DNA of 64,000 nt from positions 39,086 to 103,085 of the forward strand of contig JAFVTS010000022.1 of the NCBI GenBank assembly GCA_017503105.1, in the 5' to 3' direction. The first letter of the stretch is position 1; each line of letters opens with the position of its first letter. The notes under the pieces are model-generated. The model ran no database searches. It saw only the letters and a list, made by a program, of their open reading frames with translations, and was not told where the DNA came from. Positions 6,001-58,142 of this stretch are shown here, piece by piece. A program made the translations under genes and the position numbers. The DNA is from Clostridia bacterium. Its GTDB lineage: Bacteria > Bacillota > Clostridia > Oscillospirales > CAG-272.

Positions 6001-6126
6001 ATGAAAAAGTATAATGCTCCCGAGATTGAAATAATCGATTCTCCCGACGTTGTCGTTACCTCCCCCGAGGTAGAAACCGAAAGGATTCCTCTTACGGCTA
6101 CAAACGATACTCTTTATGAAGTATAA
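6001..6126 (+). CDS. Small MKKY..PE peptide 1 (41 aa)
   Basis: A 41-codon ORF with a strong GGAGG ribosome binding site, starting 19 bases after the stop of the secreted protein and followed by a terminator. The peptide begins MKKYNAPEIEI and contains SPDVVVTSPEVET and then RIPLTAT. It has no signal peptide and no membrane segment, and is acidic. Peptide 2 (10628-10756) shares the same start and the SPDVVVTSPEVETE block; peptides at 11051 and 57978 are more distant relatives. The spacing Y-x-x-P-x-I near the N terminus matches the YxxPxL leader element known from lasso-peptide precursors, but no maturation genes lie nearby. Its function is unknown. Confidence 0.85.
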   Translation: MKKYNAPEIEIIDSPDVVVTSPEVETERIPLTATNDTLYEV

Positions 6127-6146
6127 TTAAGTCGGCACACCGACTG

Positions 6147-6182
6147 CCGCCCGAGGCTGAAAAAGCCTCGGGCGGTTTTTTT
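6147..6182 (+). terminator. Rho-independent terminator after peptide 1
   Basis: CCGCCCGAGGC and GCCTCGGGCGG form a perfect 11-bp stem around TGAAAAA, followed by TTTTTTT. Confidence 0.95.
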
Positions 6183-6183
6183 A

Positions 6184-6349
6184 CCTTCCCCTTTTTGGGG
6201 AAGATGGATTTTGGCGCAAGCCAAAAGACGGATGAGGTTCAGGATTACTTTTTCGCAAACTCGGCGGTTTAAAACTCGGCACTTTATAAGAATGTTTTAC
6301 TGAAACCTCATCCACCACTTCGTGGTCCCCCTTCCCCAAAGGGGAAGGC
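6184..6349. repeat. MITE-like inverted-repeat element
   Basis: The left end (CCTTCCCC...GGGGAAG, then GATGAGGTT) is matched in inverse at the right end (AACCTCATC, then CTTCCCC...GGGGAAGG), so the whole of 6184-6349 can fold on itself; each end also has its own short hairpin. The middle holds no ORF. Elements of this general type are common in gut Clostridia intergenic regions (from memory, not searched). No transposase is present. Confidence 0.65.
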
Positions 6350-6391
6350 TAAGAGAGCAACGCCCTACGGGAGGATTTTAATTTCGCACTT

Positions 6392-6447
6392 CGCATTCCG
6401 CATTCCGCATTCCGCATTCCTAATTCCTAATTTCGCATTCCGCATTT
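6392..6447. repeat. Short tandem heptamer repeat (GCATTCC/TAATTCC)
   Basis: Several units of GCATTCC followed by TAATTCC and again GCATTCC occur head to tail. It is a low-complexity tract just right of the inverted-repeat element. No gene is seen in 6350-6550. Confidence 0.8.
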
Positions 6448-6550
6448 GTAAAATCGTCCGACGTTTTAGAAATAACGCCCAAAGCGCGTTACATTTTGCA
6501 CAAAAATAACATTTTTTATTTGTATATATTGCTATTTTTTGTTTTTTTTA

Positions 6551-6579
6551 TTGATTTTTTTAAAATACAATGATATAAT
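6551..6579 (+). promoter_or_regulatory. Promoter of the second triple-sandwich secreted protein
   Basis: TTGATT at 6551-6556 and TATAAT at 6574-6579 are spaced by 17 bp, about 50 bases before the start codon. Confidence 0.8.
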
Positions 6580-6629: not shown

Positions 6630-9600
6630 ATGAAAAAGAGAATAATCTCTCTTCTTCTCGCGGTTGTAATGCTGTTCTCGTGCCTGTCGTTGAACGTTTT
6701 TGCAACCGAAGAAACCGCATCGGACGAAACCCCCTCGGTTGGCACCACGGTCGCCGACACCCTTAAGGCTCACACCGATGCAGAAATCAAAGCGTACATC
6801 GATGCGCTTACGGACTCCGCGTTTATGTTCCACGACGGAACGACGAGAAGCCTCAACGGTACTAACCTCAACGACTCCGGCACGCGCTTCACCGTTACGG
6901 AGGACGGCAGACTCGTTGTAGGTCCCGCAGTTACCGCAGGATACGAGGCACACTTCAACCTCACAGGTCACTCCGTCCTTGACGGACGTACGAACATACT
7001 TAAAAACTATAAGGCGAACGACGCCCTTCACGGACAGAGCTTCGTTGTACAGGCAGACATAGAGCTCACCGATTACTTTATCGGTCTTAACACCTCGCAG
7101 CGCCTTCTTCAGATCACCTCCTACGCAGGCTACGGTACGTATAACAATACTACCAGCAGACCCAAGGCGCTTCAGCTTCAGCTCCTTCAGATAGCGGGCA
7201 ACAAGCTCCAGGCGAACATCAGAGGCAGCGGCTACCAAAGCGTTGCTGAGCTTAAACCTAACACCGTTTACAGCATTGCAGTGCACGTAAATCCCCAGGA
7301 TATTGATTTGGCAACGAAATCTTACGGCTCCTATGACGTTTACGTAAACGGAAGCCTCGTTGCCGAAAGACTCGGCTTCTTAAGTGAGGGTGCCAACAAA
7401 GGTATCACAATGCCCGAGAACCAGCCTTTCTTCCCTGACGGCGTTTTCAGCGATAACGCGAACTCCATCCTTAAGGCGGGTCAGACGGCGTACTTCTTCA
7501 CCGACACTATGCCCGACGTTACCACCGACACGGATGCTGACGGAATTCCCGACATTTACGAGGGCGTTTGCGGCATTACCGCAGAGACCGTTCCCACCAA
7601 GGTTGAGCTCATCGGCACCGCAAAGGGCGTGCAGGACTTTGCTCTCGGCGGTCTCAGATTCCTTCAGATGGGTACGAACATCGTTCACACCGAGAACGCG
7701 TTCTACCTTGACAACGCTTTGGTATACCGCGCTGACGAGTACGTAAACGTACTTGAGCACGCACTTGTGAAGGGTGAGCACACTCACGACTTTACCAAGG
7801 CTACCACCGACGTTACTTACACCTGTGCAGTTTGCGACGGCTATAAAGTAGTCACCGAAGCTCTCGATGCTAACGGCGACAGAGTTTGTGACGTTTGCGT
7901 AGGCGAGCTTGACGAGGGCGGAATCCTTTCCACCGACGAGCTTGCAAATTACGCGGACTCCGTTCCCTTCTCCTCGAACACGGGTAGGGGTAACGGCATT
8001 ACTGACTATCGCGGCGCTATCTCTCAGGTCACCGATGATAACGACAACACCTACACCAAGGTAGGCGCACCCACTAAGGAGCCTACCACTATAGACACGG
8101 CTTATATGAACCTCGTACAGTCGGGCTTCGGCTATCCCTACCAAGGTCCCACCCTTAACAACTTCGAAGCCCTCAAGGGTAAGTCCTACGTCGTTTCCGC
8201 TGATATGAAGCTCTACGACACGATCGACGAGAGCATCGGACACCTCAACGTTCTCGGAACTATGTCCTATCTTCAGGGCTCCGACGGTTGCACCGCTCTT
8301 AACGCTCTTAACGTAGTATTCTTCCTCCGCATCAACGTAAAGACGGGCGTGGTCGAATACCTCGACGCTGCAAAGGGCGCGAATTCTTACGTTTCTACGG
8401 GTATAAGCATTAAGGACGGAAAGTTCCATACTCTTGCCGTTCATCACACTCCCGCAGAAGTGGGTGCTGAGAACACCTACGACGCTTACATCGACGGAAG
8501 ACTCGTTGCGTCCAACGTTCAGGCTCTTACGAACGATCAGAACAAGCAGATGACCTTTACCTCGGGCGAGCTTAATTACGCCAACTCTACCGTTAAGCAG
8601 ATAACCGTTAACGGTGCTGTCGATTTCTTCCCCGCTCTTGCGAGAACTCATCAGCTCTCCGATTCCATCGTTGCCAAGCTCACGGCAGATCAGTACGCTT
8701 GGGATAACCTTAAGTTCTACTACGCAGACACCTTCTTTGAGCACATTCACGATTACGAGCTGACCCATCAGCACGATCTTGAAAACGGCACGAACCACGT
8801 CACCTACACCTGCTCCGTTTGCGGACTTACGAAGGAAGCGACCGTTGTGATGTCCGACCGCGCACAGAGCGGCGTTCTTACTCCCGACGAGGTTGCGGCT
8901 CTTGCAGGTGCTGAGAATATGCTCGCATACGGCGAGTGCACGGATGACAATCCTTTCGCAGGACTTAAAGAGTCCGACTCTTGGGAGGCAATAAGTGTCG
9001 TAACCGACGAGGCGACGGGCAATAAGTACATCAAGTACGGCGCGTCTACCGCCACAGGCAATGGCGGATGCTACATCCAGAAGACGACTTCTTTGTCGGG
9101 CAGAGGCACCGTTCCCAAATATATGGATCAGGCGGGCAGGGCGTACGTAATAAGCGTTGACGTTATGCACTACGGCGCGGCTAGCTTGAGCCTTTTCGAG
9201 ATTATCTCCTACACGGCAGGTACCGACGGTATTTCCGACGGCTCGAAGATGGACACCGTTAAAATTCACCCCGCAAAAATCTTTGCGGACGGTACTCTTC
9301 AGTACGACACGGACGGAACCCAGTCGTACACGCCAGCAAAGCACGCTGACGGAACGGACGTCGTTCTTGACGCAGGCAAGTTCTACACCGTAACCCTTCA
9401 TCACACTCCCGCGACCAACACCTTCGACCTCTTCGTTGACGGCGAGTGCGTTGCAAACGACATAAAGGCGCTCGGCGACGCAGGCCACGCGGCTTCCTCT
9501 TGGACCAGCTCGGCTCTTATCGAGGGCAAGACCATCACTATGGAAGGTGCTAAGCACTTCACCCCCGGTATTATGAGATTCACTCAGCTTGGAAATACCA

Positions 9601-10607
9601 CCGCGGGTCCCGACAAGGATTACATCGCGTTCGACGCACCCAAGCTCTACTACTCCGACGTTAACTACGAGTGCGCTCACAGCTTCGTTAACGACACCTG
9701 CGAATGGTGCGGCAAGTACGAGCCCCTCACTCACTGCGACATCTGCGACGGCGAGGTTATCTCCGAGAACGCAGCAGTAGTCGGCAAGTCCGTTTCTCTC
9801 GGCGAGCTCATCGATATGAACGTTTACGTTAAGTATCTCGGCGACACCGAGGGCGTATACGCAAATCTTGTTGCAGGCGCTAAGGAAGAAGCGATCGCAC
9901 TTGACGAGCTTACCGCAGACAAGGACGGCACATACAAGCTCACCCTTCCTCTTAACTCCGTTATGATGGCAGAGGACGTTACCCTTTACCTCGACGGCGG
10001 CGAATACACCACGAGCGTTAAGGAATACGCAGAGGAGCTCATCAGCATCACTACCGACGAGGTAGAGAAAAAGCTCGCTAAGGCACTTCTCAACTTCGGC
10101 GCAGCAGCTCAGGAATACTTCGCTGTAAAGAACGACGACGCGGCTCTTGACGACGTCCTTGCAAACGCAGGACTTGCCGAGGCTGACAAGACCGTTACCG
10201 ACGTAACGGCAAGCGACGCCTTCGCGGCTATTGAGTTCGCTCCCGTTGACTCCGATGCAAACGACAACGTTGCCTTCACCGCAGCTACTCTCACCTTCTC
10301 CTCCAAGACCCACGTCAAGATATACTTCACCGCATCCGAGAACGTGAAGGTTACCTTGAACGGAAGAAATCTCACTCCCGTGGAAGAGAACGGCGAGTAT
10401 TACATCGCTTATACGGTTACGAGCCCTGCTGACCTTATGAAGGTTTCCACCATCGTTATCACCGACGGCGACGCAAGCTATCAGGCTGACGTCAGCGCAG
10501 CACTCCTCGTTAAGCTCGGCGTTGAAAACGCAGCCGACGCAGACCTCGTTCCCCTTCTTAAGGCGTTTGCGTATTACGCAACTTGCGCGGCTGAGTACGT
10601 AGCTTAA
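6630..10607 (+). CDS. Large secreted protein, paralogue of the 1812-5981 gene
   Basis: A protein of 1,325 residues with the same plan as its upstream neighbour: a signal peptide (identical at the amino-acid level through residue 25), three beta-sandwich-like units (about 30-370, 432-700 and 745-1010), Cys/His linkers at about 376-430, 704-744 and 1014-1054, and the AKALLNFGAAAQ-type C-terminal domain. The first linker holds DANGDRVCDVCVG, which combines a calcium-loop-like DxNxD pattern with CxxC. The 5' leader, ribosome binding site and signal-peptide DNA (6610-6709) match 1792-1891 almost base for base, and a second near-identical patch lies at the start of the C-terminal domain (about 9755-9820 against 5133-5200). 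It has its own promoter and is followed after 20 bases by peptide 2. A surface or extracellular role is inferred. Confidence 0.85.
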   Translation: MKKRIISLLLAVVMLFSCLSLNVFATEETASDETPSVGTTVADTLKAHTDAEIKAYIDALTDSAFMFHDGTTRSLNGTNLNDSGTRFTVTEDGRLVVGPAVTAGYEAHFNLTGHSVLDGRTNILKNYKANDALHGQSFVVQADIELTDYFIGLNTSQRLLQITSYAGYGTYNNTTSRPKALQLQLLQIAGNKLQANIRGSGYQSVAELKPNTVYSIAVHVNPQDIDLATKSYGSYDVYVNGSLVAERLGFLSEGANKGITMPENQPFFPDGVFSDNANSILKAGQTAYFFTDTMPDVTTDTDADGIPDIYEGVCGITAETVPTKVELIGTAKGVQDFALGGLRFLQMGTNIVHTENAFYLDNALVYRADEYVNVLEHALVKGEHTHDFTKATTDVTYTCAVCDGYKVVTEALDANGDRVCDVCVGELDEGGILSTDELANYADSVPFSSNTGRGNGITDYRGAISQVTDDNDNTYTKVGAPTKEPTTIDTAYMNLVQSGFGYPYQGPTLNNFEALKGKSYVVSADMKLYDTIDESIGHLNVLGTMSYLQGSDGCTALNALNVVFFLRINVKTGVVEYLDAAKGANSYVSTGISIKDGKFHTLAVHHTPAEVGAENTYDAYIDGRLVASNVQALTNDQNKQMTFTSGELNYANSTVKQITVNGAVDFFPALARTHQLSDSIVAKLTADQYAWDNLKFYYADTFFEHIHDYELTHQHDLENGTNHVTYTCSVCGLTKEATVVMSDRAQSGVLTPDEVAALAGAENMLAYGECTDDNPFAGLKESDSWEAISVVTDEATGNKYIKYGASTATGNGGCYIQKTTSLSGRGTVPKYMDQAGRAYVISVDVMHYGAASLSLFEIISYTAGTDGISDGSKMDTVKIHPAKIFADGTLQYDTDGTQSYTPAKHADGTDVVLDAGKFYTVTLHHTPATNTFDLFVDGECVANDIKALGDAGHAASSWTSSALIEGKTITMEGAKHFTPGIMRFTQLGNTTAGPDKDYIAFDAPKLYYSDVNYECAHSFVNDTCEWCGKYEPLTHCDICDGEVISENAAVVGKSVSLGELIDMNVYVKYLGDTEGVYANLVAGAKEEAIALDELTADKDGTYKLTLPLNSVMMAEDVTLYLDGGEYTTSVKEYAEELISITTDEVEKKLAKALLNFGAAAQEYFAVKNDDAALDDVLANAGLAEADKTVTDVTASDAFAAIEFAPVDSDANDNVAFTAATLTFSSKTHVKIYFTASENVKVTLNGRNLTPVEENGEYYIAYTVTSPADLMKVSTIVITDGDASYQADVSAALLVKLGVENAADADLVPLLKAFAYYATCAAEYVA

Positions 10608-10627: not shown

Positions 10628-10756
10628 ATGAAAAAGTACAACACTCCCGAACTTGAAATAATCGTTTCTCCCGACGTCGTAGTTACTTCTCCCGAAGTCG
10701 AGACGGAAATCATTCCGATCAACGGCACTTCGAGCGGTAGCCTTTACAACACATAA
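10628..10756 (+). CDS. Small MKKY..PE peptide 2 (42 aa)
   Basis: A 42-residue ORF starting 20 bases after the paralogous secreted protein, with GGAGG at 10615-10619. It begins MKKYNTPELEI, an exact YxxPxL arrangement, then SPDVVVTSPEVETE, IIPINGTS and a C-terminal SLYNT. It shares about two thirds of its residues with peptide 1. It has no signal peptide and no Cys, and no Lys beyond the N-terminal pair. It is probably co-translated with, or expressed from the same mRNA as, the upstream gene. Function unknown. Confidence 0.85.
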   Translation: MKKYNTPELEIIVSPDVVVTSPEVETEIIPINGTSSGSLYNT

Positions 10757-10899: not shown

Positions 10900-10928
10900 T
10901 TGACAAACGCTATTTTTAGTGGTATAAT
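10900..10928 (+). promoter_or_regulatory. Sigma-A promoter of peptide 3
   Basis: TTGACA at 10900-10905 and TATAAT at 10923-10928 with a 17-bp spacer, a perfect consensus. A leader of about 115 bases follows, holding a hairpin at 10986-11008 (TCTGCCAA / TTGGCAGA). Confidence 0.9.
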
Positions 10929-11050: not shown

Positions 11051-11224
11051 ATGAGAGAAAAATACGTTTCACCCGAAATCGAGTTCGCAAGCTCTTCAAA
11101 CGACATAGTCGCAACCTCCGCTTCCGTAGAAACCGGAAGAATACCCTTCTCCGCAACGCAGGCTTACAACGAGCTTGATATCAATACGGAAAGCCCCGAG
11201 GATACGAACTACAACGTAAACTGA
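11051..11224 (+). CDS. Small MREKY..PE peptide 3, stand-alone (57 aa)
   Basis: A 57-residue ORF with GAAAGG upstream of ATG 11051. It begins MREKYVSPEIE and contains SNDIVATSASVETGRIPFSAT, which aligns with the SPDVVVTSPEVET..IP block of peptides 1 and 2. The C-terminal tail is acidic and Asn-rich (NTESPEDTNYNVN). Unlike the other three copies it has no large secreted protein in front of it; it has its own perfect promoter, a structured leader and a strong terminator. A larger antisense-free reading frame at 10774-11178 overlaps it but lacks family resemblance and a ribosome binding site. Confidence 0.8.
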   Translation: MREKYVSPEIEFASSSNDIVATSASVETGRIPFSATQAYNELDINTESPEDTNYNVN

Positions 11225-11241
11225 GTTTGATTTTCCGAACG

Positions 11242-11281
11242 AAACAAGGCATCCCACAGCTGTGGGATGCCTTGTTTTTTA
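11242..11281. terminator. Bidirectional terminator between peptide 3 and the DMT transporter
   Basis: A perfect 34-base palindrome at 11243-11276 (AACAAGGCATCCCACAG and its complement), flanked by TTTTTT on the plus strand. It can serve both converging genes. Confidence 0.9.
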
Positions 11282-31157: not shown

Positions 31158-31276
31158 GTTGATACTAAAGCGGCATTATCCTTTTCAGAGGCTCAAATCG
31201 TTTTGAAAAAATAACGGAACCGCATTTAAACGCTATGAATTACAATAAACATTTAACAACACAAAAGGAGTACAAA

Positions 31277-44200: not shown

Positions 44201-44409
44201 TCAAGCTCTACGGTTATACCGACGGCGGTGAAAGAGTCGAAAAGAGCTTCTCCATTCCCGCGAAAACCGGAGCTTCAACAGGTGAGGAATTCCAAGACCT
44301 CTTCACGACTTACGTCCTCTATTGGCAGGGCGGAACGACAAACTCCGAAGAGGGCTCGTCTATGATCGTTGAAGGCTTAAGGATCGCCGAGGGCAATCTC
44401 TTCGAATAA
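38224..44409 (+). CDS. Giant secreted heparinase II/III-like protein B with five B-repeats
   Basis: 2,061 residues, GTG start at 38224 with AAAAGGAGA upstream. It has a signal peptide or N-terminal anchor (about 8-32). The N-terminal 1,000 residues run parallel to giant A: LTGDEIYGYEAIIGAKNAML, GHGTGPQF near 408, NHDLNDHGTFQIYYKG near 625 and HNGLLVFDPAL near 668. Unlike A it carries a small cysteine cluster (CNEDGCDHTEC, about 690-700). Then follow B-repeats at about 1009, 1316, 1391, 1693 and 1766, two of them as direct tandems, alternating with three beta-sandwich-like domains; the end is EGNLFE. It follows A in tandem but has its own promoter, so A and B may be regulated separately. Confidence 0.82.
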   Translation: MKTRIKSFASLFTSLVLVLAAAIAVGYFAFADGITDEDECRDVIIQTVSDDAERIVIASSDGTEYEMYFSSDAMQADQALASDISKLVYELYKVRLRAKSDAAGAVSDKEVLIGSTNRPESEQFLEMLNASVELPEDLAWGYAVINGKLLYNANNATAFNHGIEEFISYLTENNFTVDSDLFVLNTKTRAEYDAEIEADAELKRQLRIKELIAINSAFTQSDFGGAFKEMQTDRYADPTYYPAPNQHPRLFFTADKIDEIYDNLMNNPDFKTLREMFWNFANAENFTGIFPAEYKNGVEYHFNATILAQMEAKALAYILTGDEIYGYEAIIGAKNAMLTLHYIPELHQDTYHGASQVMVNVARVYDWCYDLLTEDDKNQIIAGVSNVLAPQMENGMQFPPSGMSAVSGHGTGPQFTRDWVTISLAFYDEAPSWWEFVGGRYFEKYVPVIDYCYQGGYASQGTTTYGDSKYFTKGWAAWLIKMATGEFPYVENFHLGAYYYFSHFQPNGYYFQTGDGGRSAKGCGIDPAFMFISAALFDDPVIANMAKKYSNDYTKFSYAFTMEYTVCTVLIWHTYGPDLSEYDEEELKIDLIQYLDFPSGTMTARNSWDNDGAAALMRIGEMTMANHDLNDHGTFQIYYKGLLAGTSGAYKEYGSYVHRYYLQATVAHNGLLVFDPALADADPIYGTKAPCNEDGCDHTECTVDRDNILNAKRYYYSGSQRARGEAGTIENWLSGEYNMAEVYGADWGYDLIDGAAEFAYIAGDLTSAYDLQTVKYVGRKMLTVFTDDPNYPMLFFTYDQMTSVEGGENFTKTFLLHTVKEPVIDEEALTAVITQDQGRLFMHSLTGAQNITKIGGEGKAYWVNGKNCTDQYSPTDNANVIWGRIELSATGNLSDNFLTAMYVSDATNDTPLEVGKISSDYVDGAVIKNKVIAFTKTDINAQQYKEFSFTTEGQGLYDYYVAGIETGTWSIRVDGVAVATAYSNEGGSIITFTAPAGKVTLVPGRDVIGANGGKIKYNALGGKVPDDAPLAYNNEEITPLPQNIVRGSDTFLGWYTSPTYEPETYVTEIPMGLSGAFVVYARYLSTLVDADFTDPDFKLDVTEGNAANIINFQASKKAGASFITKTDENGVQYVEWTEGSQDPLINYSNKTSNLSTMSSDDECATFTITLSKNGDEAMIGSQFRIYTKKTVSGASVTTRQYIFTTSTAGEVRLGDSITGPLVTTLTDEKTTLKFVMDFKNEEIRAFDEQNNPLASIKVKVKAASEAANMSEWRKLLNEVVLYWYAASPEDADASMRIYGIKIEEGDRVAAALPENAILYSHGGGKLPEDAPKEYSKQTPTLLPIPTREKAVFEGWYTTPSFENGTEITEVPISTEGPFTVYAKWTLIPDDGSIVYHVGDGKLPEGAPTFFSKDSPTKLPTPTTNRARYTFVGWFTSPDFKDKTLVTEVPTDTEGWFEVYAKWRFELFEDFTEVDVDAAEENTTLENGLTLRANACPGATFITKTDESGKKYLEFNKGTKDPAIIMTTGNIAKSANTSVSYEIVIGVNGDAPIVNYTFRTLAKVDVNGDKLGSNNQLYMFGLRSDGAYLSADGSNKIPADETARFAEFKDGKITIRVEIDFKNELIIGYRDDGTLVTSPLVIPESSGAKNGLEYMKTFTDYVMYLYSQGDSSSSARIYSIKIVDDKIFGKDVSSLINYNMNGGTLPEGAPENYDPDQATVLPTPSKDGSTFEGWYTTADFEEGTLITEIPAGKSGIFAVYAKWTENGKINYNLGGGTLPAGAPERFDPDGVTVLPIPERANASFGGWYTSESFDAATLVTEIPAGLTGEYTVFAKWNVVVFDEDYSKTVIDVTESTFKKDGITYNGGTEKDPREGASFKTEEDESGNKYLVWTNGTEDPMITATGGAIASMAQPFVSYEIRIRRNGDAPFMQTGATVRAQFDVSGNKLSPSAQIPLFGTKKDGGVYLAGTELLGTVSADGSEFVIRIVIDFANLKLYGYTDGGERVEKSFSIPAKTGASTGEEFQDLFTTYVLYWQGGTTNSEEGSSMIVEGLRIAEGNLFE

Positions 44410-44526: not shown

Positions 44527-47500
44527 TTATTCAAAGAGATTGCCTTCCGCAACGGTTATTTCGTAAATGCGGAGCGACTGTGATTCGGTGCCCGAGTTGC
44601 TGTACCAATAGAAGTGATATTTAGTAAGACACTTCTTCCACTCGGAGGCACTGAGGCTGTCTGCCACACCGTCGCCGTCGACGTCAATGGACGGCGGGGT
44701 GAGCGCTTTGCTTGCCGTTACCGCGCCCGACTCGTCGTAGATCTTGATAAGGGCGTTCGCAAAATCAAACACCACTCTGGCGGTGAAGATCTCACCGTCC
44801 GAAATATTTCCTATCTCAGTCGACGTGCCCGAAAGAACGATCTTCCCCGTGCTTGAGATCGTGAATATCGTAACAGAGCCCGACGTAGCGTTCGTCACGG
44901 GAGAGGTGGAATTTATGCGTATATGTCCGCCGATGATACCGTCCGTTCCGTTTTTCGAGAAGGAGAACAAGAGACTCACCTCGTCTTTGTCCGTCGTGGC
45001 GAAGTTATCGGTCACGCTTGTGGAGCTGAAATGCGAATCCTTCGTTCCCTTAGTCCATTCAAGATAAGACTTGCCGTTCTCGTCCGTCTTTGTCACGAAC
45101 GACGCACCGCCCTTTCCCGAGGACGTGAAAGCCAATGTTTGATACGAAGCGTTTTTCGTGTCGTCAGTGCTGATACTGACTCCCGTAAAGTCCGTGTTGA
45201 CGTACGTGTAATTCCATTTTGCAAAGACGGTGACGTCCTGACAGAATTCTCTTCCGACTATCTCGGAGATCTCCGTACCGTCGTTGAACGTCGGAGTCGT
45301 GTACCAGCCTCTGAATATGCTTTTATCCTTCGTAGGCGTAGGAAGAATAAGCCTGTCGCTGCTTGCGTAAACGTCAGACGTTCCCTTAGGAAGAGTGCCG
45401 CCGTTCGTAACGTAACTTATTTTAGCGACGGAGGTGGGTGCAAACGAGTTGCCCTCGTCTATTTTAACGCCGTAAATCTTAATGATACTGTCATCGTCGC
45501 TCTTCGAGCTGGTCCAGAACTGAGCAAGAGCCTTGTTATGGCACTTCATAAATTCAAGTCCGTCCTCGGCAAGCGACTCTGCGGGAACGGCAAACGCAAC
45601 CTTCCCTATCACCTCACCGTCCGCGTTATAAGCTCGCATCGTAAGGTCGGAGAAGTTCACAGCTATGCGCACCGTTGTTATCTCGGAGGGAGTGATAGTT
45701 CCGATGGCCACGGAGCCGCCGAGCTTCACCGTTCCGTCTGCGGCAACGGTCAGCATATTGGTCTTGATGCTGGTGCTGAGCGCCGTTCCGTCCGCGGTCA
45801 GATAAGCAAGAAGTCTGAGCGTCGTCACGGGCAAGCTCTTTCCTGCTTCAGCGGAGAAGCGGAAGGTGTAGGAAACCTCGCTCGAAGAAAGATCCCGAAG
45901 AGCCTTATTCGCAGGCATAAAGGACATTCCGGGGTCGGACGAGCCCGTTATCCATTCAAGATAATTGCGTCCCGACGCGTCCGTTTTCGTGGTGTACGAA
46001 GCACCCGCCTTGGAGCCGCCTCCGTAAGCTATCTGATTAAGAGTCTTCGACGCCTCAAAGAGGCTTACCTCGGTTTTTGAATAGTCCTCACTCAAGAGCA
46101 CGCTATACCACTTCGCGTAGACCGTGAACGTACCCGAACAATCTGCGGGAACCTCGGTCACCTTAGAGGAGAGCTCAAGATCAGATGACGTATACCAGCC
46201 CTCAAAGACGCAGCCTTCCTTTTCGGGCGTAGGAAGAGGTGTCGGCGCGTCGGGATTGTAGTTCTCGGGCGCACCCTCGGGAAGCGTGCCTCCGTCGGTT
46301 ACGTATTCAATGACCGTTCTCGGAGAGAGCGTTACGTCGCCCGCAGGAGCGGTAAAGTTAAGGAATTCTCCGTCCGCGTCTGCCCTGACGCTTGCCACGG
46401 TGACTCCGTCAACGACGACGTCCCAAATACCCTTGCAAACGCCGCTTACATAGTAATCAAGCAATGCGCCGTCCGAGCCCGTATCTGCGCTGAATTTCTT
46501 ATACGTCGGCTCCCTGTCGTCAACGAACAGAGCGACCGTATTTTTCACTCTCACACCCGAGATGCCCGTATCCGTGTTAAGTTTTTCGACCTTCAGGCTC
46601 ACCCCGTCCTCCGTGTCGGAAACGTACATAGCCGTCAGAAGATTGTCGGTAATATTGCCCGTCATATCGATCTGAAGACGTCCCCAGATCGTCTTATAGT
46701 TATCGCTCGGAGCGTATTGGTCGGTGCAGTTCTTGCCGTTTATCCAATAAGCATACCCATCTCCGCCGATCTTTTCTATTTTTTCGGCACCGGATATGAG
46801 ATTTACGCTGAGCTTACCGCCGTAAGCGCCGTATACCTCCGCGCTTCTTCCGTCATCCGAGATAACGGGCTCGGAAACGGTGTGAAGAAGGAAGCTCTTC
46901 GTGAAGTCCGCGCCCTTTGAGGTTATGGAATCGAAGACGAAGAACATCATCGGCGCTTGTTCGTCGCCCGTGTAGAGCGTGAGCATTCTTCTGCCGACGT
47001 AATCGGCGGGACTGTGCCCCGTGTAGGGGTCATAATAAGCCTTTGTGACGTCGCCCGCGATGTAAGCGTATTTAGACGAGCCGTCCTCGTTATAGGCGTA
47101 AGAGTATGCCATGACGGTACCCGTGTCGTAATTTCCGCCGAGCCACGAGTCAAGCGAGCTCGTTTCGTTTCTGTGGACCTGGCTGCCCGAGTAATAATAG
47201 CGCGCGGCGTTCGTGATGTTGTTATAATCTACGGTACAAGTCTCGTGAGTGCAAGCTTCATCCGAGCACTGTGCCTTCGTTCCGTATATCGGTTCGTCGT
47301 CCGCGAGTGCAGGATCGAACACGAGAAGACCGTTGTGCGCGACAGTTGCCTGAAGATAATACTTATGCACGTACGAGCCGTACTTGTTGTAAGTTCCCGA
47401 GGAGCCTGCGAGCATACCCTTATAGTATATCTGGAAGGTTCCGTGGTCGGAGATGTCGTGGTTGCCCATCGTCATCTCACCGATCTTCATAAACGTGACA

Positions 47501-50500
47501 GCCGCATCGGACTCCCAAGAGTTTCTCGCGCTCATAAATCCGTTTCTGTCACCGAAGTATTGGATCATATCAATTCCGTCACCGCGAGTCGCATACTCTT
47601 CTTTGGTTTCAGCAGGGATATAGGAAGAATAGATAAGCGTCAGAGGCGCCGTGATCTCGTCGGCGGAATTATAGAAGAATCTCGTAAATCCGTTTGAATA
47701 ATGCCTTGCCGCCGCGTATAGCGCGGGGTCGTTGTAAAGTGCCGCACCGAGAAGCATATACTCGTGCGTAACGCCCGAGCCCTGCGCGCCTCGTCCTCCG
47801 TCACCCGTGGAGAAGTACTTATCAGCGCCGTTTACGTGGCTAAGGAGGAAGTAAGCGCCCTTTTGCGCATCTTCCTTGTGGGCGGGGTAAATTCCTGTCG
47901 AATTGTTGATAATGAACGATGACAAAAGAGCGTAGAAATACTTGGAAAGACCGTATCCCGCCGTTCCTTGCGATACCCAACCGGACTCGTACATTACCTC
48001 CCATACCTTTACGTACTCAGCAAAATACTTGCCTCCGATATAGTCCCACCAGCTCGGCTCCTCGGTGTAGAAGCAAAGAGCTATGCAAAGATAGTCCTTG
48101 ACGAACTGCGGTCCCGTTCCGTGACCGGAGATGTAATTCGTGTTTGCTATGGAGCTTGAGAGCCCTTGCTCCTTGCGGAAGAAATTATATTCCATCGCGG
48201 GGCAAAGTCTGTTCTGCACACCGAGCACGAGCTGCGTTTTATCGGTCTCCGTCAGAAGGTCGTAGCACCAGTCGAAGACTTTGATCACGGTCATAAGAAC
48301 GTGCGAGGGACCGTGATAAGGATCGGTATGCTGCTCCGTGGTGTACATTATAGTCAAGATGGCATTTTTCACGGCGATGATAGCCTCATAGCCGTAAGAC
48401 GCGTCACCCGTTAAAACGTAAGCGAACGCCTTCGCCTCAATTATCGCAAGAGTATCGACGTCGTATCTGTAAGTAACGCCGTTCTTTTCGTTCGCTTCAA
48501 ATACGCCCGTGAAGTTCTGAGTGTTGGCGAAAGTCCAGAGAAGAGAGACCGCCGACTGCATTTCAGGGTCACTCAGCAGCGCCTTTATAGCGGGAAGCTG
48601 ATCCTTTGTGAAGTAAAGATACGGATGCGACTTGCCTGCGGGCGTTGCGAGCGGATCAGGATAGGTGTTGGCGGGAAGCTTTGCGTACTCACTCATAGTG
48701 ACAAGGGCGCCGTAATCAACGTTCTTGTAATTGTCCTGCTTTCCTACAAGCGGATGTTCGAAATCGGATTTGTTCGTCGAGGTGCCGCCCGTATAGCCGT
48801 CGTAAAGACCCGTAGCGCCGTCGATGTACTGATTTGACGGGAGGTTGTATTGGTTGGTCGTGTCAACTACGTAGAAATCGTCCGTGGCAAAGGTGGAATT
48901 CACGCCTTTCAGCTCATCTATATATTCACCCGTAGCGGTGAACTTCGCATAGACGGTAACGACACCCGCCTTGATCGGCGGAATCTCGGTTATTTTCGTT
49001 TCGTAGCTCTGAGAGGTGAACCAGCCGTCAAAGGTATAGCCCTCCTTCTCGACTACGGGAAGCGGCGTCGGCTCGTCGTAAGAATATCTTGACGGAGCGT
49101 CAAGAGGCAGCATCGCGCCGTTCGTGTCATAATTAAGGATTCCGCCCGAATACTCGCACACGGGAGTCGCGCCGAGGTAGACCGAAACGTCGTCGAACAA
49201 GAGCTCGCCTTCCTTCGTTCCGGAGGTCCAGAAGTTGATAATTATTCTTTCTTTATCCTTGCCCGCATCCGTGAACTTGACGTAAAGGTCGGTATTTAAC
49301 TCGGAAATTCTCGTGCTTGCCATAAGATGCCCGTCGCGATAAGCGTGGACGTTGTCCTCCCCGGGAATATCTCCCGCGCCAAAATCAACGACGAAGGAAT
49401 ATTCCTGCCACTCGGAGGTCAGCGTTCCTATCGTATAAGTACCGCCGAGCTTGACGTTTCCGATAGAATTCAAATTGAAAAGAGTTGCCGTCTGATCAGC
49501 CGAGCCCTCGGCGGGATAGTGCCTGAGTCTGAAGTTTGCATCGGCAACGTCAGCTTCCGTTCTCGCGAGCTTAACGGTATAAGTCAAGACCTTGCTCGCG
49601 TAGGTGCCCGTCGCGGGGTCATACATATGCGGCTGGGGATCAAAGGTGTTGTTCGAATCGCTTTGAGAGTCGGTTCCTGTGCCCGACGCCTTATAATGCT
49701 TGACGTAATATCCGCCCTCGCCGTCATCTACGAGCTCGTAGGTAGATCCGCCTTTACCGCCGAGATTAAGTCCCTCACCGATTTTTTTACCGGAATCGAA
49801 GTTCGTGTTCATTACGCAAACAGTAGGACTCAACGTGAAATTGGAATCGAGCGCCTCTATTTCCTCGGGGGTGAAGAAAACGCTTTTTCCGTTGTTGCCG
49901 ACGGAATACCAGCGCACGTCAGCCCCGTTTACGAGCGGTGTTACAAGGCTCGTCGCGCTGACGCTCTCACCGGGCTTGAAGACGCCGACCTTCGTTCCGT
50001 CCTCGAAAACGCCGTTCTTAAGATTTGCGATAACGTAATCCCCGTCGGCAAGTCTGTCCGTTCTGTAATCAAAATACTCCTGTGCCCTCGCTCCGTATCC
50101 TCGAAGAGCCGTCAGAAGCGCTCTGTTCGAATCGTTGAGAGCCGAGCCTATGGTGTACTGAAGTATACTGTACTTGCTGAGTGAGCTGTAAGTATATTCC
50201 GTATCTCCGACGTTTTTGATATACGCCACCGAATAGACGTAATCCGTCATCTGCTTTGCCGCAAGCCCGCTGTACGTGAAGATCTGACACCTCGTGCCCC
50301 CCACGTTCTGCCAGCCCGCGCTTTTAAGATCCACAGCGCTCGCCGCGCTCTCGTGCGTGAAGCTTGAGGGAAGCGCTTTTCCCTCCTCCGCCTCCCAGAC
50401 GAGCATTCCGTATTCGGCTCCCGCCGGAATTTCTCCAAAATCGACGGCGTAAAGAAGGTATACCGTTTCCTTAAGAGATAGCGTGTTCGCCTTTATCTCA

Positions 50501-50610
50501 GGCGCGCGCGTTCCCGTATTCTCCGTTTGCGCCGATGCCGTGAACACAGCGATAAGCACGGTCAGAACCAACGTTATAATTACGCTGAATATCCTGTATC
50601 TTCGCTTCAT
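44527..50610 (-). CDS. Giant secreted heparinase II/III-like protein C with N-terminal accessory domains
   Basis: 2,027 residues; ATG 50610 with GGAGG upstream and a clear signal peptide (about 5-27, ending TASAQ). Order: an N-terminal domain (about 30-180) with LTALRGYGARAQEYFDYRTD, related to the C-terminal domain of the 1812 and 6630 proteins; a beta-sandwich-like domain (270-490); a B-repeat (490-560); the lyase-like part (560-1430) with GHGTGPQF near 828, NHDISDHGTFQ near 1050, HNGLLVFDPAL near 1092 and the cysteine cluster CSDEACTHETC near 1115; then two B-repeats (about 1432 and 1727), each followed by a beta-sandwich-like domain; end EGNLFE. A and B lack the first modules, so the architecture has been reshuffled. 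Exact substrate unknown. Confidence 0.82.
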   Translation of the reverse strand: MKRRYRIFSVIITLVLTVLIAVFTASAQTENTGTRAPEIKANTLSLKETVYLLYAVDFGEIPAGAEYGMLVWEAEEGKALPSSFTHESAASAVDLKSAGWQNVGGTRCQIFTYSGLAAKQMTDYVYSVAYIKNVGDTEYTYSSLSKYSILQYTIGSALNDSNRALLTALRGYGARAQEYFDYRTDRLADGDYVIANLKNGVFEDGTKVGVFKPGESVSATSLVTPLVNGADVRWYSVGNNGKSVFFTPEEIEALDSNFTLSPTVCVMNTNFDSGKKIGEGLNLGGKGGSTYELVDDGEGGYYVKHYKASGTGTDSQSDSNNTFDPQPHMYDPATGTYASKVLTYTVKLARTEADVADANFRLRHYPAEGSADQTATLFNLNSIGNVKLGGTYTIGTLTSEWQEYSFVVDFGAGDIPGEDNVHAYRDGHLMASTRISELNTDLYVKFTDAGKDKERIIINFWTSGTKEGELLFDDVSVYLGATPVCEYSGGILNYDTNGAMLPLDAPSRYSYDEPTPLPVVEKEGYTFDGWFTSQSYETKITEIPPIKAGVVTVYAKFTATGEYIDELKGVNSTFATDDFYVVDTTNQYNLPSNQYIDGATGLYDGYTGGTSTNKSDFEHPLVGKQDNYKNVDYGALVTMSEYAKLPANTYPDPLATPAGKSHPYLYFTKDQLPAIKALLSDPEMQSAVSLLWTFANTQNFTGVFEANEKNGVTYRYDVDTLAIIEAKAFAYVLTGDASYGYEAIIAVKNAILTIMYTTEQHTDPYHGPSHVLMTVIKVFDWCYDLLTETDKTQLVLGVQNRLCPAMEYNFFRKEQGLSSSIANTNYISGHGTGPQFVKDYLCIALCFYTEEPSWWDYIGGKYFAEYVKVWEVMYESGWVSQGTAGYGLSKYFYALLSSFIINNSTGIYPAHKEDAQKGAYFLLSHVNGADKYFSTGDGGRGAQGSGVTHEYMLLGAALYNDPALYAAARHYSNGFTRFFYNSADEITAPLTLIYSSYIPAETKEEYATRGDGIDMIQYFGDRNGFMSARNSWESDAAVTFMKIGEMTMGNHDISDHGTFQIYYKGMLAGSSGTYNKYGSYVHKYYLQATVAHNGLLVFDPALADDEPIYGTKAQCSDEACTHETCTVDYNNITNAARYYYSGSQVHRNETSSLDSWLGGNYDTGTVMAYSYAYNEDGSSKYAYIAGDVTKAYYDPYTGHSPADYVGRRMLTLYTGDEQAPMMFFVFDSITSKGADFTKSFLLHTVSEPVISDDGRSAEVYGAYGGKLSVNLISGAEKIEKIGGDGYAYWINGKNCTDQYAPSDNYKTIWGRLQIDMTGNITDNLLTAMYVSDTEDGVSLKVEKLNTDTGISGVRVKNTVALFVDDREPTYKKFSADTGSDGALLDYYVSGVCKGIWDVVVDGVTVASVRADADGEFLNFTAPAGDVTLSPRTVIEYVTDGGTLPEGAPENYNPDAPTPLPTPEKEGCVFEGWYTSSDLELSSKVTEVPADCSGTFTVYAKWYSVLLSEDYSKTEVSLFEASKTLNQIAYGGGSKAGASYTTKTDASGRNYLEWITGSSDPGMSFMPANKALRDLSSSEVSYTFRFSAEAGKSLPVTTLRLLAYLTADGTALSTSIKTNMLTVAADGTVKLGGSVAIGTITPSEITTVRIAVNFSDLTMRAYNADGEVIGKVAFAVPAESLAEDGLEFMKCHNKALAQFWTSSKSDDDSIIKIYGVKIDEGNSFAPTSVAKISYVTNGGTLPKGTSDVYASSDRLILPTPTKDKSIFRGWYTTPTFNDGTEISEIVGREFCQDVTVFAKWNYTYVNTDFTGVSISTDDTKNASYQTLAFTSSGKGGASFVTKTDENGKSYLEWTKGTKDSHFSSTSVTDNFATTDKDEVSLLFSFSKNGTDGIIGGHIRINSTSPVTNATSGSVTIFTISSTGKIVLSGTSTEIGNISDGEIFTARVVFDFANALIKIYDESGAVTASKALTPPSIDVDGDGVADSLSASEWKKCLTKYHFYWYSNSGTESQSLRIYEITVAEGNLFE

Positions 50611-54351: not shown

Positions 54352-54363
54352 TTTTTTGAATAA

Positions 54364-54758: not shown

Positions 54759-54812
54759 CGGGGAAATTTTTACCTTTTCTTGTCAATTTTTTGAAAAAAG
54801 GAGATTTTTAAA

Positions 54813-57800
54813 ATGAAAACCGTATCAAAGCGCCTCTTCTTGGCGCTTGTATTGCTTTTTGCGCTTCTCGCACTCCTGACAGGAATAAGCACCGCCCTCC
54901 CCGAGCACGAAGAACCGCAAGCGAAAGCACAAATTCCCACCGTAAAAGCGGAGCTCTCCTTGGAGGAAACATCTGCGGCAAGCATAAGCTACGGAAGTTT
55001 AGTAACGTCTTGGGATGTTTCCGCTACGAGCCAAGATAAGGTAAAAGCTACCCTTTATAACGATCCTAAAACATACGGATACCAAGGATATTACATTCTT
55101 GCAATTTCGGGCGCGGGAAATATGAAGGATTGGAGCCCGTCTTCCTCTTGCCCTTGGTACGGTTCATATTCCGATAAGATAAAATATGCCGTAATAGAAG
55201 ACGGCGTTACCACTATAGGAGATTCCACCTTCTATAACTGCGCTACCCTCTCGGACGTCACAGTCCCAGAGAGTATAACCTCGGTTGGCAACAGCGCCTT
55301 TTACGGTTGTGAAAGTCTTGAATCCATAAACATTCCGGAAGGCGTCAGCAGAATAGGCGGTTACGCGTTTTACGGCTGCCTGAATCTCACAAGCGTTTCG
55401 ATTCCTTCGACGGTAGCTTCCATCGGTAGCTGCGCGTTTAAAAATTGCTCAAGATTGAGCACTCTGAATATTGGAAACGGCGTGAACTATGTAGGTTCTT
55501 CTGCATTTGACGGATGCGACTCGCTTTCCTATAACAAATACGACAACGCGTTTTATCTCGGCAATTCGGAAAATCCTTACACCGTGCTTGTAGAGGCGAA
55601 ATCTTACGCGATAACAAGCGTTTCCATTCACGAAAATACTAAAGTTATATGTGACAATGCGTTTTACAGTTGCCAGAGCCTTACAACTGTAAATTCGCCT
55701 GCGGGACTGAGATTTATCGGATATAACGCTTTTGCTTATTGCGGTGCGCTTTCAGAATTTGATATCGGTAAGGAAGTACATTATATTGATATAAACGCGT
55801 TTCTGAATTGTACCAACCTCAAGAGCATCGTTATTCCACTAAGTGTTATTACGATTAACAAAAACGCGTTTCTGAATTGTACGGGGCTCGCAATTTATTG
55901 TGAATCGGATTCCAAACCCGAAAAATGGGATACCGATTGGAATCCCGATCAAAGACCCGTTACGTGGGGATATACGAGCGATCCCAACGGAAAAGCCGCC
56001 AATGAATGGAACATCTCCGCTACCGCATCCGATAGCGTTATCGCAAGGCTCTACGCCGACCCCGCAAACGAGGGCTATTATAAGCTCGTTATCTCGGGCT
56101 CAGGAGAGATGAACAGCTTCGCTCCTCCCGATTATGCGCCTTGGTATTCGTCTTACAAAAGCACTATAAAATCCGTTATAATTGAGAACGGCGTGACCTC
56201 TGTCGGAAAATTTGCGTTCTATGATTGCGAGAGCCTTTCGAGCGTTGTAATTTCCGACAGCGTAACGATCGTCGACGATTTTGCATTTGAGCTTTGCACG
56301 GGCCTCGCAAGTGTGACTCTCGGAAACGGAGTGAGCACTATCGGCGAGTGGGCATTCTATCTTTGCAAAAGCCTTCCGAGCATTACAATTCCCGCAAGCG
56401 TAACGACCATCTGTGATTATGCGTTCTGCCTTTGTTCGACTCTTGCGAACGTGACAATTCCTAACAGCGTTATCTCTATCGGCTCCGAAGCCTTCTCAAG
56501 TTGCACCGCTCTTACGAGCGTGACAATTCCTAACAGCGTTACCTCTATCGGCTCCGAAGCCTTCTCGGGCTGCACCGCTCTTACGAGCGTGGCAATAGGA
56601 AACGGTGTAACGACGATTGGAGATAAAGCGTTTGAAAACTGTCGGAGTCTTGCGGGCGTGACTATCGGAAACCGTGTGACCTCTATCGGCAAACACGCGT
56701 TTTACAATTGCGATAATCTTACAGATATTGTGATTCCCGACAGCGTAACGATTATCGGCGATTTTGCATTCGAGCTTTGCACGAGTCTCACGAGCGCGGC
56801 TATTGGAAACGGCGTAACTACTATCGGTGAGTGGGTATTCGAATCTTGCACGAGCCTTGCAAGCGTGACAATAGGAAACAGCGTAACGTCTATCGGAGCT
56901 GATGCTTTCTCCGGATGCACGAGCCTTACGAGTATTATAATTCCCGACAATGTAGAGTCTATCGGCTTTTGGGCATTTAAGGATTGTACAAATCTTAGGG
57001 TTTACTGCGAAGCTGCGAGTCAGCCGGAAGGCTGGAATGCAGATTGGAACCCCGTTCCTTGCCCCGTCGTTTGGGGCTACGTCAGAGCCAACGTCCTCAC
57101 CAACCTGACCCTTGGCTCTATGCTTTCGGTCAACGCGTTCGTGAACGTGGATGACGCCGAGGGCGTTACCGTGCGCTTCACTATGGGTGAAAAGATTGCA
57201 ACTGTCGGCGGTGTTTACGACGCGGGCACGGGCAGATACAAGTTCACCTTCGAGGGCGTTTGGCCCACCAATATCGGTGACACTATTGTGATCGAGGTCT
57301 TCAAGGACGGTGCTCTTATAGCTTCCGTCAACGATTACAGCGTGAAGGGGTATTGCGAAAACCTGCTCGGAATGAGCAAGGAAGAGCTCGGTCTTTCCGA
57401 TGCGAAGTATGCGGCGATAAGAACTCTTATATGCGACCTGCTTGACTACGGCGCGGCAGCACAGAAGTACACGGACTACAAGACCGACGCTCTTGTAAAC
57501 GAGGGCATTGAGGGCTCAAGCGAGTTCACGCCCCTTACTTGGACGGATATGAAGGTGAGCTACCATAAGACGGTGGACGGCACAAGATTCACCGCGGCAA
57601 ACCTCTACTTTAACAACGCGAATCAGCTAATCTTCAAGTTCCGCGCGGCAGACGTGGAAAAGCTGACGCTTCGCCTCTTTGTCAACGGCGTTATCACGTA
57701 TTATACGGCAGATGACTTTGTAAACAACGACGGTGTCTACTCGTTCTATACCGACAAGATCCGCGCGACGGAGTTTGACGACGTTTACTACGCGACGCTT

Positions 57801-57953
57801 ATATACGACGGTGTAGAGGTGCAGACGCTTGCTTACAGCGTCAGGTCTTACGTATATTCGAAGCAAAGTGCGTCAAATACGACCCTTGCCGAGCTTGTCA
57901 GAGCGACTTACAAGTACGGACTTTCGGCAAAGGCCTACGCACAGGCAAACTGA
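54813..57953 (+). CDS. BspA-type leucine-rich-repeat secreted protein with shared C-terminal domain
   Basis: 1,046 residues, AAAAAGGAG before ATG 54813, signal peptide about 5-30. Two blocks of LRR_5 (BspA/TpLRR) repeats of about 23 residues, for example VTIPNSVTSIGSEAFSGCTAL, occupy roughly 120-370 and 440-740; each block opens with a W-x-(V/I)-SAT-x-S-D-x-V segment and closes with a C-E-x-x-S-x-P-x-x-W-x-x-D-W-N-P segment. The last 290 residues form a domain with CDLLDYGAAAQKYTDYKTD, like the C-terminal domain of the 1812 and 6630 proteins. BspA proteins bind host matrix or other bacteria; here an adhesion role is inferred. It is followed after 24 bases by an MKKY peptide. Adjacent 69-bp units at 56451-56588 are almost identical. 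Confidence 0.88.
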   Translation: MKTVSKRLFLALVLLFALLALLTGISTALPEHEEPQAKAQIPTVKAELSLEETSAASISYGSLVTSWDVSATSQDKVKATLYNDPKTYGYQGYYILAISGAGNMKDWSPSSSCPWYGSYSDKIKYAVIEDGVTTIGDSTFYNCATLSDVTVPESITSVGNSAFYGCESLESINIPEGVSRIGGYAFYGCLNLTSVSIPSTVASIGSCAFKNCSRLSTLNIGNGVNYVGSSAFDGCDSLSYNKYDNAFYLGNSENPYTVLVEAKSYAITSVSIHENTKVICDNAFYSCQSLTTVNSPAGLRFIGYNAFAYCGALSEFDIGKEVHYIDINAFLNCTNLKSIVIPLSVITINKNAFLNCTGLAIYCESDSKPEKWDTDWNPDQRPVTWGYTSDPNGKAANEWNISATASDSVIARLYADPANEGYYKLVISGSGEMNSFAPPDYAPWYSSYKSTIKSVIIENGVTSVGKFAFYDCESLSSVVISDSVTIVDDFAFELCTGLASVTLGNGVSTIGEWAFYLCKSLPSITIPASVTTICDYAFCLCSTLANVTIPNSVISIGSEAFSSCTALTSVTIPNSVTSIGSEAFSGCTALTSVAIGNGVTTIGDKAFENCRSLAGVTIGNRVTSIGKHAFYNCDNLTDIVIPDSVTIIGDFAFELCTSLTSAAIGNGVTTIGEWVFESCTSLASVTIGNSVTSIGADAFSGCTSLTSIIIPDNVESIGFWAFKDCTNLRVYCEAASQPEGWNADWNPVPCPVVWGYVRANVLTNLTLGSMLSVNAFVNVDDAEGVTVRFTMGEKIATVGGVYDAGTGRYKFTFEGVWPTNIGDTIVIEVFKDGALIASVNDYSVKGYCENLLGMSKEELGLSDAKYAAIRTLICDLLDYGAAAQKYTDYKTDALVNEGIEGSSEFTPLTWTDMKVSYHKTVDGTRFTAANLYFNNANQLIFKFRAADVEKLTLRLFVNGVITYYTADDFVNNDGVYSFYTDKIRATEFDDVYYATLIYDGVEVQTLAYSVRSYVYSKQSASNTTLAELVRATYKYGLSAKAYAQAN

Positions 57954-57977
57954 TTTTTAAAAAAGGAGAAAAGAAAA

Positions 57978-58142
57978 ATGAAAAAGTACGTATCCCCTAA
58001 AGCATATATAACGGGCGCCGATGAGCTTGCCGACGTTATCAGAACGTCGGGCATAGAAGGCGATGACGACGAGATCGGCGGCGGAAGCTCGGGCGGCGAC
58101 GTTGAAACGCCCCCTACAAGCTCGGGACTTTATAATTTTTAA
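57978..58142 (+). CDS. Small MKKY..P peptide 4 (54 aa)
   Basis: 54 residues, AAAAGGAGA ten bases before ATG 57978, 24 bases after the BspA-like gene. It starts MKKYVSPKAYITGADELADV, then IRTSG, an acidic run (EGDDDEIGGG), SSGGDVETPP and a C-terminal SGLYNF. It shares the YVSP start with peptide 3, DVET with peptides 1 and 2 (VET), and SLYN/GLYN at the end with peptide 2. No signal peptide and no Cys. Confidence 0.8.
   Translation: MKKYVSPKAYITGADELADVIRTSGIEGDDDEIGGGSSGGDVETPPTSSGLYNF

What the first reader, a model, noticed from the sequence alone, without database searches (positions are those of the whole stretch)
6001..58142. Family of tiny MKKY..P peptides placed directly behind secreted proteins
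Four ORFs of 41-57 codons (6001, 10628, 11051, 57978) share a (M)xxKYxxP start and, in three, a D(I/V)V.TS..VET block. Three follow a large secreted protein after 19, 20 and 24 nt with strong ribosome binding sites. All three of those secreted proteins, and no other gene here, end in the ALLNYGAxAQ-type domain; giants that carry the domain at the N terminus or lack it have no such peptide behind them. Linkage of a C-terminal domain to a companion peptide suggests a dedicated pair, for instance modification, chaperoning or signalling.
Basis: partly seen in the sequence, partly recalled or inferred. Interest (0 to 1): 0.78.

Follow-up and report, generated by a model that had tools for sequence, protein, structure and literature searches.

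The report
Dispersed modified-peptide precursors behind secreted proteins
The tiny genes behind giant secreted proteins look like precursors of chemically modified peptides, scattered around the genome and probably served by one shared peptide-modifying machine, which would tie a recently described peptide family of unknown role to the bacterial surface.

Summary
The window holds four such peptides; the genome gives 22 matches, all in frames of 46-74 codons. Sixteen of the 22 start 12-26 nt behind another gene; in 15 that gene has a signal-peptide-like N terminus. The leader recurs across Clostridia as KKYxxPE(I/L)E...EDVITTS, with Y in 57 of 59 and S in 54 of 59 collected peptides. It resembles the YxxP leaders of lasso and LPP (linear polyphosphorylated peptide) RiPPs. 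This genome encodes matching machinery: a discrete RRE, a signal-peptidase/nucleotidyltransferase fusion and an HprK/ScmC-like kinase. In 147 class-level genomes all 29 peptide-positive ones are among the 48 RRE-positive, against 0 of 99 RRE-negative. Elsewhere the peptide sits in an operon with the gene order of lppAKBSDN. Best explanation: RiPP-type precursors modified in trans by an LPP-like machine. Chemistry and function are inferred. A new variant of the LPP kind: many dispersed precursors, most co-encoded with a secreted protein.

The parts
6001..6126 (+). Precursor-like peptide 1, 41 aa: leader MKKYNAPEIEIIDSPDVVVTS, then core PEVETERIPLTATNDTLYEV (split inferred)
10628..10756 (+). Precursor-like peptide 2, 42 aa, 20 nt behind the secreted protein
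11051..11224 (+). Precursor-like peptide 3, 57 aa, stand-alone, 443 nt behind the secreted protein, own promoter-like and terminator-like sites
57978..58142 (+). Precursor-like peptide 4, 54 aa; near-identical copy elsewhere in the genome (C25:51342)
1788..5981 (+). Secreted protein upstream of peptide 1 (hydrophobic N terminus; YGA-type C-terminal domain about 5277-5969)
6630..10607 (+). Secreted protein upstream of peptide 2 (domain about 9903-10604)
54813..57953 (+). Secreted protein with BspA-type leucine-rich repeats upstream of peptide 4 (domain about 57228-57944)
6146..6176 (+). Terminator-like stem, followed by a T run, directly behind peptide 1
10900..10928 (+). Promoter-like TTGACA-17-TATAAT (12 of 12) 5' of peptide 3
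11241..11278 (+). Terminator-like stem behind peptide 3

Best explanation
The peptides are RiPP-type precursors with a YxxP leader that is bound by a discrete RiPP recognition element (RRE). One set of trans-acting enzymes elsewhere in the genome, of the kind found in LPP (lppAKBSDN) clusters, would then act on them: an HprK/ScmC-like kinase phosphorylates the conserved Ser of the (T)S motif, an archaeal-type signal peptidase removes the leader near that motif, a nucleotidyltransferase may add a further group, and an MsbA-like exporter may send the product out. Most copies are placed to be co-expressed with a large secreted protein, so a modified peptide would be made together with each such protein. 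Shown by sequence: the family, its position behind secreted genes, its co-occurrence and operon linkage with the machinery, and conservation of RRE leader contacts and of the peptidase triad. Inferred: binding, phosphorylation at Ser, the cleavage site, export, and any role with the secreted partner. I claim that it works like an LPP system, not that it is a proven member.
For: Own genome: RRE (PqqD, 56.9 bits, cut-off 23.4) whose stop overlaps the start of a signal-peptidase/NTP_transf_5 fusion (131.8 bits, cut-off 31.2), and a kinase of the operon type at C37:71989-72672, E=4.7e-69, against 22 peptide matches. Co-occurrence, class sample of 147: peptide profile A10 positive in 29, all among the 48 RRE-positive genomes, 0 of 99 RRE-negative (Fisher 2.8e-18). 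For the 15 positives that gave no row to A10: 15 of 34 RRE-positive vs 0 of 99, 7.6e-11. Order sample of 117: short-frame matches in 19 of 33 RRE-positive and 3 of 84 RRE-negative genomes; two of those three carry the kinase. Linkage: in 13 genomes a match lies within 3.6 kb of the RRE on the same strand; 9 of these are among the 29 class genomes, against 0.45 expected for an 8 kb span. Draw by kinase only: of 80 named-genome loci, 58 have the RRE, 44 the signal peptidase, 35 an ABC exporter, 19 the nucleotidyltransferase and 17 the peptide (E<=0.05); 18 of the 19 peptides are on the kinase strand; 0 of 8797 shuffled small ORFs matched at E<=1 against 22 real ones. Five loci (L228, L229, L300, L302, L349) have the order peptide-kinase-RRE-SpI-ABC-NTase, that of lppAKBSDN (PMC13381572, section 7). 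The own RRE keeps LppB N33, D70 and F74; across 79 RREs these are kept in 72, 62 and 74; Ser/His/Asp triad in 62 of 62 signal peptidases. Tyr to Ser spacing is mostly 17 or 19; in LPP it is 18, counted from the numbering in PMC13381572.
Against: G244 has a convincing peptide, but no RRE or kinase was found (90% complete genome); G184 and G228 have peptide and kinase but no RRE at E<=1e-4. 19 of 48 RRE-positive class genomes have no detected peptide, nor has G180 of the own family. The G209 kinase matches HprK_rel_A only weakly (19.1 bits, cut-off 200) and ScmC below cut-off (43.6 of 125); the own kinase matches neither at E<=0.01; Pfam gives nothing and the PDB profile search only a weak phosphoenolpyruvate carboxykinase match (E=0.053), so its chemistry is uncertain. 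The LPP leader block HQxIxFET is absent. In the own genome kinase and RRE lie about 56 kb apart, and an exporter was not looked for. 16 of 59 collected peptides lack the Pro. One own peptide follows a methyltransferase-like gene (C22), not a secreted protein. Three of the 13 linked matches are weak (G007, G015, G051; E 0.004-0.02). No structure prediction could be run. Shared ancestry or gut lifestyle could inflate the co-occurrence, although the positives span many families.
Confidence: 0.84

Rival explanations
1. The peptides are small cytoplasmic chaperones or secretion helpers of the upstream secreted protein and are not modified.
For: Position 12-26 nt behind secreted genes; core class follows the C-terminal class of the partner in G014; the peptide itself has no hydrophobic stretch like a signal peptide (by eye on the sequences).
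Against: Does not predict the strict co-occurrence with the RRE (29 of 29), the operon linkage with kinase, RRE and signal peptidase, or stand-alone copies such as window 11051.
Confidence: 0.08
2. The peptides are precursors of the machinery, but the product is a signal or antagonist released independently of the secreted protein; the position is only a convenient expression site. (A sub-case of the best explanation, so the odds overlap.)
For: Stand-alone copies and copies next to non-secreted genes exist; RiPPs are often signals or antagonists (general knowledge).
Against: 16 of 22 own copies, and 37 of 49 rows listed (at least two rows are duplicates), follow a gene by at most 60 nt; 26 of the 30 such genes read in full there have a hydrophobic N terminus. 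Core and partner classes match in G014.
Confidence: 0.3
3. Lasso peptide precursors processed by a lasso B2/cyclase pair.
For: YxxP leader and a conserved Thr near the leader end (lasso motifs as).
Against: No Transglut_core3 (B2) match over cut-off in the own genome (best E 0.148); in the own peptides the residue behind TS is P, A, L, S or G, with no evident fixed ring acceptor (by eye). Cyclase not searched.
Confidence: 0.03

Closest known systems
Linear polyphosphorylated peptides, LPP (lppAKBSDN; PMC13381572, 2026)
   Same: YxxP leader, conserved Ser near the leader end, discrete RRE, kinase, archaeal-type signal peptidase, NTP_transf_5, MsbA-like exporter, and the same gene order in five loci; LppB contact residues conserved.
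   Different: Up to about 20 precursor-like peptides per genome, most away from the enzymes and behind secreted-protein genes; leader EDVITTS instead of HQxIxFETxxS; in this genome the RRE and the peptidase-NTase fusion stand apart from the kinase. The paper reports one to three precursors per cluster; a term search of its main text found no Clostridia, remote, distal, dispersed, orphan or secreted.
Prochlorosins (solitary ProcM, many precursors; PMC10783134, start of abstract in a search listing)
   Same: Precursors modified by a solitary promiscuous enzyme.
   Different: Lanthipeptides of the Nif11 family with other chemistry; a link to secreted proteins was not seen in the listing.
Lasso peptides / paeninodins
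   Same: YxxP or WxxP leader, discrete RRE, and in some subfamilies kinase and nucleotidyltransferase (passages and sections of PMC13381572).
   Different: No B2 leader peptidase over cut-off in this genome; no evident ring positions.
SynChlorMet cassette (NCBIfam ScmC, ScmD)
   Same: The kinase of G209 matches ScmC (E=2.3e-11, below cut-off) and its RRE matches ScmD weakly (E=0.0016).
   Different: Known here only as NCBIfam names; not compared further.

Membership tests
LPP | Discrete RRE | tested here: met
   PF05402 56.9 bits, cut-off 23.4; LppB N33, D70, F74 kept
LPP | Archaeal-type signal peptidase with Ser/His/Asp | tested here: met
   TIGR02228 E=3.8e-7, 30.1 bits, below its curated cut-off 51.85; triad in 62 of 62
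LPP | HprK-like kinase | tested here: inconclusive
   Homologue of the operon kinase in the own genome, E=4.7e-69; named-family matches weak and below cut-off, none for the own copy
LPP | NTP_transf_5 nucleotidyltransferase | tested here: met
   131.8 bits, cut-off 31.2, fused to the signal peptidase
LPP | MsbA-like exporter | tested here: inconclusive
   Present in operons of relatives; not sought in the own genome
LPP | Precursor motif YxxPxVLxHQxIxFETxxS | tested here: not met
   YxxP, the hydrophobic position and the Ser are there; HQxIxFET is not
LPP | RRE in the LPP clade of the RRE tree | not tested
   No tree built; LppB is only a weak sequence match (9x8z, E=0.33)
LPP | Multiple phosphorylation of the core Ser | not testable with these tools
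   Needs mass spectrometry
Lasso peptide | B2 transglutaminase-like leader peptidase | tested here: not met
   PF13471 best E 0.148, below cut-off
Lasso peptide | Macrolactam cyclase | not tested
   Asn-synthase family not searched

The most novel reading that the evidence does not exclude
The system is a two-part surface module: each giant secreted protein is made together with its own peptide, which one shared machine phosphorylates, trims and exports, and which then docks on the C-terminal domain of that same protein, or links it to surface polysaccharide, as an anchor or ligand. This would give the LPP kind its first biological role.
Probability: 0.25. Interest if true: 0.88.

Novelty: new variant of a known kind. 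Interest (0 to 1): 0.76.

Why it matters
The roles of LPPs and paeninodins are stated to be unknown (PMC13381572, discussion). If many precursors are encoded one by one behind secreted proteins of Clostridia, the role becomes testable, because the locus names the partner protein. It would also mean that searches restricted to biosynthetic clusters miss most precursors of such systems, since they lie far from the enzymes.

Tried and rejected
One C-terminal module shared by other upstream proteins and the YGA domain: profile comparison gave probability 1.4% and 0.2%; dropped. Lasso membership: no B2 over cut-off. A second RRE at C34 (20.2 bits, below cut-off) lies in what reads as ribosomal protein L7/L12 (name recalled from the sequence); dropped. 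Pfam and NCBIfam have no match for the four peptides. The literature search for motif letters found nothing, nor did; the listings show no paper on dispersed precursors behind secreted proteins (listings only; RRE-Finder PMC7470986 and PMC12710340 were searched inside for terms, no occurrences). The library lacks most subscription journals and bioRxiv, so absence there is weak.

Rows left out of counts: 7 of 23 positive genomes (G041, G055, G075, G093, G101, G107, G146) had hits only in long or broken frames and were not counted; 3 of the 7 are RRE-positive. In one search, G174 was not counted (161-aa frame). Some short-frame matches in the order sample were counted by frame length without reading the peptide (for example G208; the script picked a wrong ORF there). 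The Mantel tests used 14 own and 9 G014 pairs, chosen because the upstream gene was readable; G014 has 16 matches. In the own genome the correlation is not specific to the C terminus. The first Mantel run split leader and core badly in several rows and was replaced.
Full report
What is there. The four ORFs exist as described. They share MKKYxxP or a close form and D(V/I)(V/I)xTS, and all four have a Tyr three or four residues from the end. A search of the own genome with one peptide gave 11 matches, with a profile of 11 peptides 22 matches at E<=10, all in frames of 46-74 codons. Sixteen of the 22 start 12-26 nt behind a gene on the same strand. In 15 of the 16 that gene, read in full, has a hydrophobic signal-peptide-like N terminus (six, nine; own simple rule, no dedicated predictor); in one (C22) it reads as a methyltransferase. 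Of the other six, one lies at a contig end (C36:53182), and C14:194601, C32:136727 and C42:4029 stand in front of a gene with a signal-like N terminus (by eye). In the window, the peptide at 6001 lies before a 13-pair terminator-like stem, with none found between it and the upstream stop. The peptide at 11051 stands alone with a 12-of-12 promoter-like site and a terminator-like stem. At 57978 no such stem follows directly on the + strand.

The C-terminal domain. A profile of the last 235 residues or so (A8, 10 rows) has 19 matches in the own genome. One lies at a contig end, and two (C5, C32) are the same gene on duplicated sequence. Of the 17 counted as distinct, 14 are followed by a peptide and three are not (C5/C32, C4:33518, C1:26554). 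In two of the 14 the domain is near the N terminus or the middle (C31, C25:5394), and in one (C33) other sequence follows it. So the domain is a strong marker but not a rule. In the class sample it was found in 5 of 147 genomes, all RRE-positive. In G081, G010, G113 and G091 peptides again follow copies of it (coordinates), though in G091 only one or two of about ten copies and in G113 four of five.

Conservation elsewhere. Profile A5 in 147 class genomes (E<=0.1) gave 23 positive genomes, 16 with short frames; in 117 order genomes (E<=0.01) 23, of which 22 with short frames. Profile A10, of 47 leaders, gave 142 matches in 29 of 147 class genomes, all listed ones in frames of at most 115 codons without stops. 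Copy numbers reach 20 (G000), 17 (G090), 16 (G014), 15 (G013) and 14 (G066). In 59 collected peptides the leader Tyr is Y in 57 (F in 2), the Pro in 43, the Asp in 50 and the Ser in 54; since most were found by profile, these numbers lean upward.

The machinery. The leader recalls lasso leaders (my own recollection first; then PMC13381572, passages and sections 6, 7, 8, 11, 12 and 35). The own genome has a discrete RRE at C37 whose stop overlaps the start of a 525-aa protein with a signal-peptidase part and an NTP_transf_5 part. A kinase of the operon type is on the same contig about 56 kb away. No lasso B2 was found over cut-off. The RRE profile A6 is present at E<=1e-4 in 48 of 147 class and 33 of 117 order genomes. 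All 16 short-frame genomes and all 29 genomes are RRE-positive; 0 of 99 RRE-negative class genomes have such a match. In the order sample 19 of 22 are RRE-positive; of the other three, G184 and G228 have the kinase and G244 has neither. Three RRE-negative genomes of the own family (G162, G212, G252) have neither peptide nor kinase; a fourth relative (G180) has the RRE but no peptide match. NTP_transf_5 is over cut-off in 50 of 147 and in 15 of the 16.

Operon linkage. In 13 genomes a match lies within 3.6 kb of the RRE on the same strand; in nine it lies 1.0-2.0 kb before the RRE, in four behind it. I fetched 20 RRE regions, seven of them chosen for linkage. With the own region and G051 that makes 22; 20 hold the kinase, not the own one and not G197. 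Five loci (L228, L229, L300, L302, L349) have peptide, kinase, RRE, signal peptidase, ABC exporter and NTase in the order of lppAKBSDN; in L228 one further gene lies between peptide and kinase (order). G051 has two YxxP peptides in a cluster with a radical SAM enzyme, RRE, kinase, signal peptidase, exporter and NTase. A draw of 80 named loci by the kinase alone holds the RRE in 58, the signal peptidase in 44, an ABC exporter in 35, the NTase in 19 and the peptide in 17 (19 peptides, 18 on the kinase strand); 14 of the 19 follow an ORF within 120 nt, 9 of the 14 with a hydrophobic N terminus. So a recurrent locus is: secreted protein, peptide, kinase, RRE, signal peptidase, exporter, NTase. In the window's genome the first two parts appear many times without the rest.

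Residues. The PDB entry of LppB with its leader (9x8z; identified) is a weak match to the own RRE (E=0.33; TbiB1 5v1u E=0.008). In an alignment of 79 RREs with that LppB stretch, N33, D70 and F74, which contact the leader around its Tyr and Pro in LppB, are kept in 72, 62 and 74, and in the own RRE all three. The peptidase triad is kept in 62 of 62. The Tyr to Ser spacing in the 51 of 59 peptides with a readable motif is 17 in 11, 18 in 3, 19 in 32, 20 in 3, and 13 and 22 in one each; LPP has 18 by the paper's numbering, where the phosphorylated Ser is core residue 3.

Pairing. In G014 the nine readable units fall in two core classes that match two C-terminal classes of the upstream protein (Mantel r=0.92; r=0.42 for a region further upstream). 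In the own genome r=0.52 for the C terminus and 0.56 further upstream. This fits cognate pairs, but also duplication of gene and peptide as one unit.

Verdict. The peptides are very likely precursors for an LPP-like RRE-guided machine acting in trans. Kinase chemistry, cleavage site, export and function are inferences. The main open point is whether the mature peptide acts on its co-encoded secreted protein.

Noticed in passing
window 31235-37942, 38224-44409, 44527-50610, 58330-63657: Four giant proteins (1775-2235 aa) end alike: three in VAEGN(I/L)FE or IAEGNLFE, one in IVEGRLF, and carry GGWYT stretches. No peptide of the family lies behind them, but one follows a gene with a related ending in C31.
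   Followed up: partly
window about 6181-6350: An inverted-repeat-like stretch (CTTCCCC/GGGGAAG, GGATGAGGTTCAG / CTGAAACCTCATCC) just behind peptide 1, perhaps a small mobile element (read by eye).
   Followed up: no
L101 (G051) about 4700-5260 and 5222-6376: A radical SAM enzyme shares a cluster with the RRE, kinase and peptidase; its two YxxP peptides contain cysteines, a possible differently modified branch.
   Followed up: partly
L305, L315, L344, L359: Kinase loci with RRE and signal peptidase in MAGs titled as Planctomycetes-type bacteria (titles), outside Bacillota; binning error not excluded.
   Followed up: no
L290 and L291 (C5 and C32 of the own genome): The same 1293-aa gene and neighbours occur on two contigs, so the assembly holds a duplicated stretch.
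   Followed up: no
L102, L103, L105 (G013, G044): NTP_transf_5 genes lie among genes that read as glycosyltransferases and other polysaccharide genes, recalling the capsule loci of LPP clusters in Bacilli (names read from sequence, not searched).
   Followed up: no
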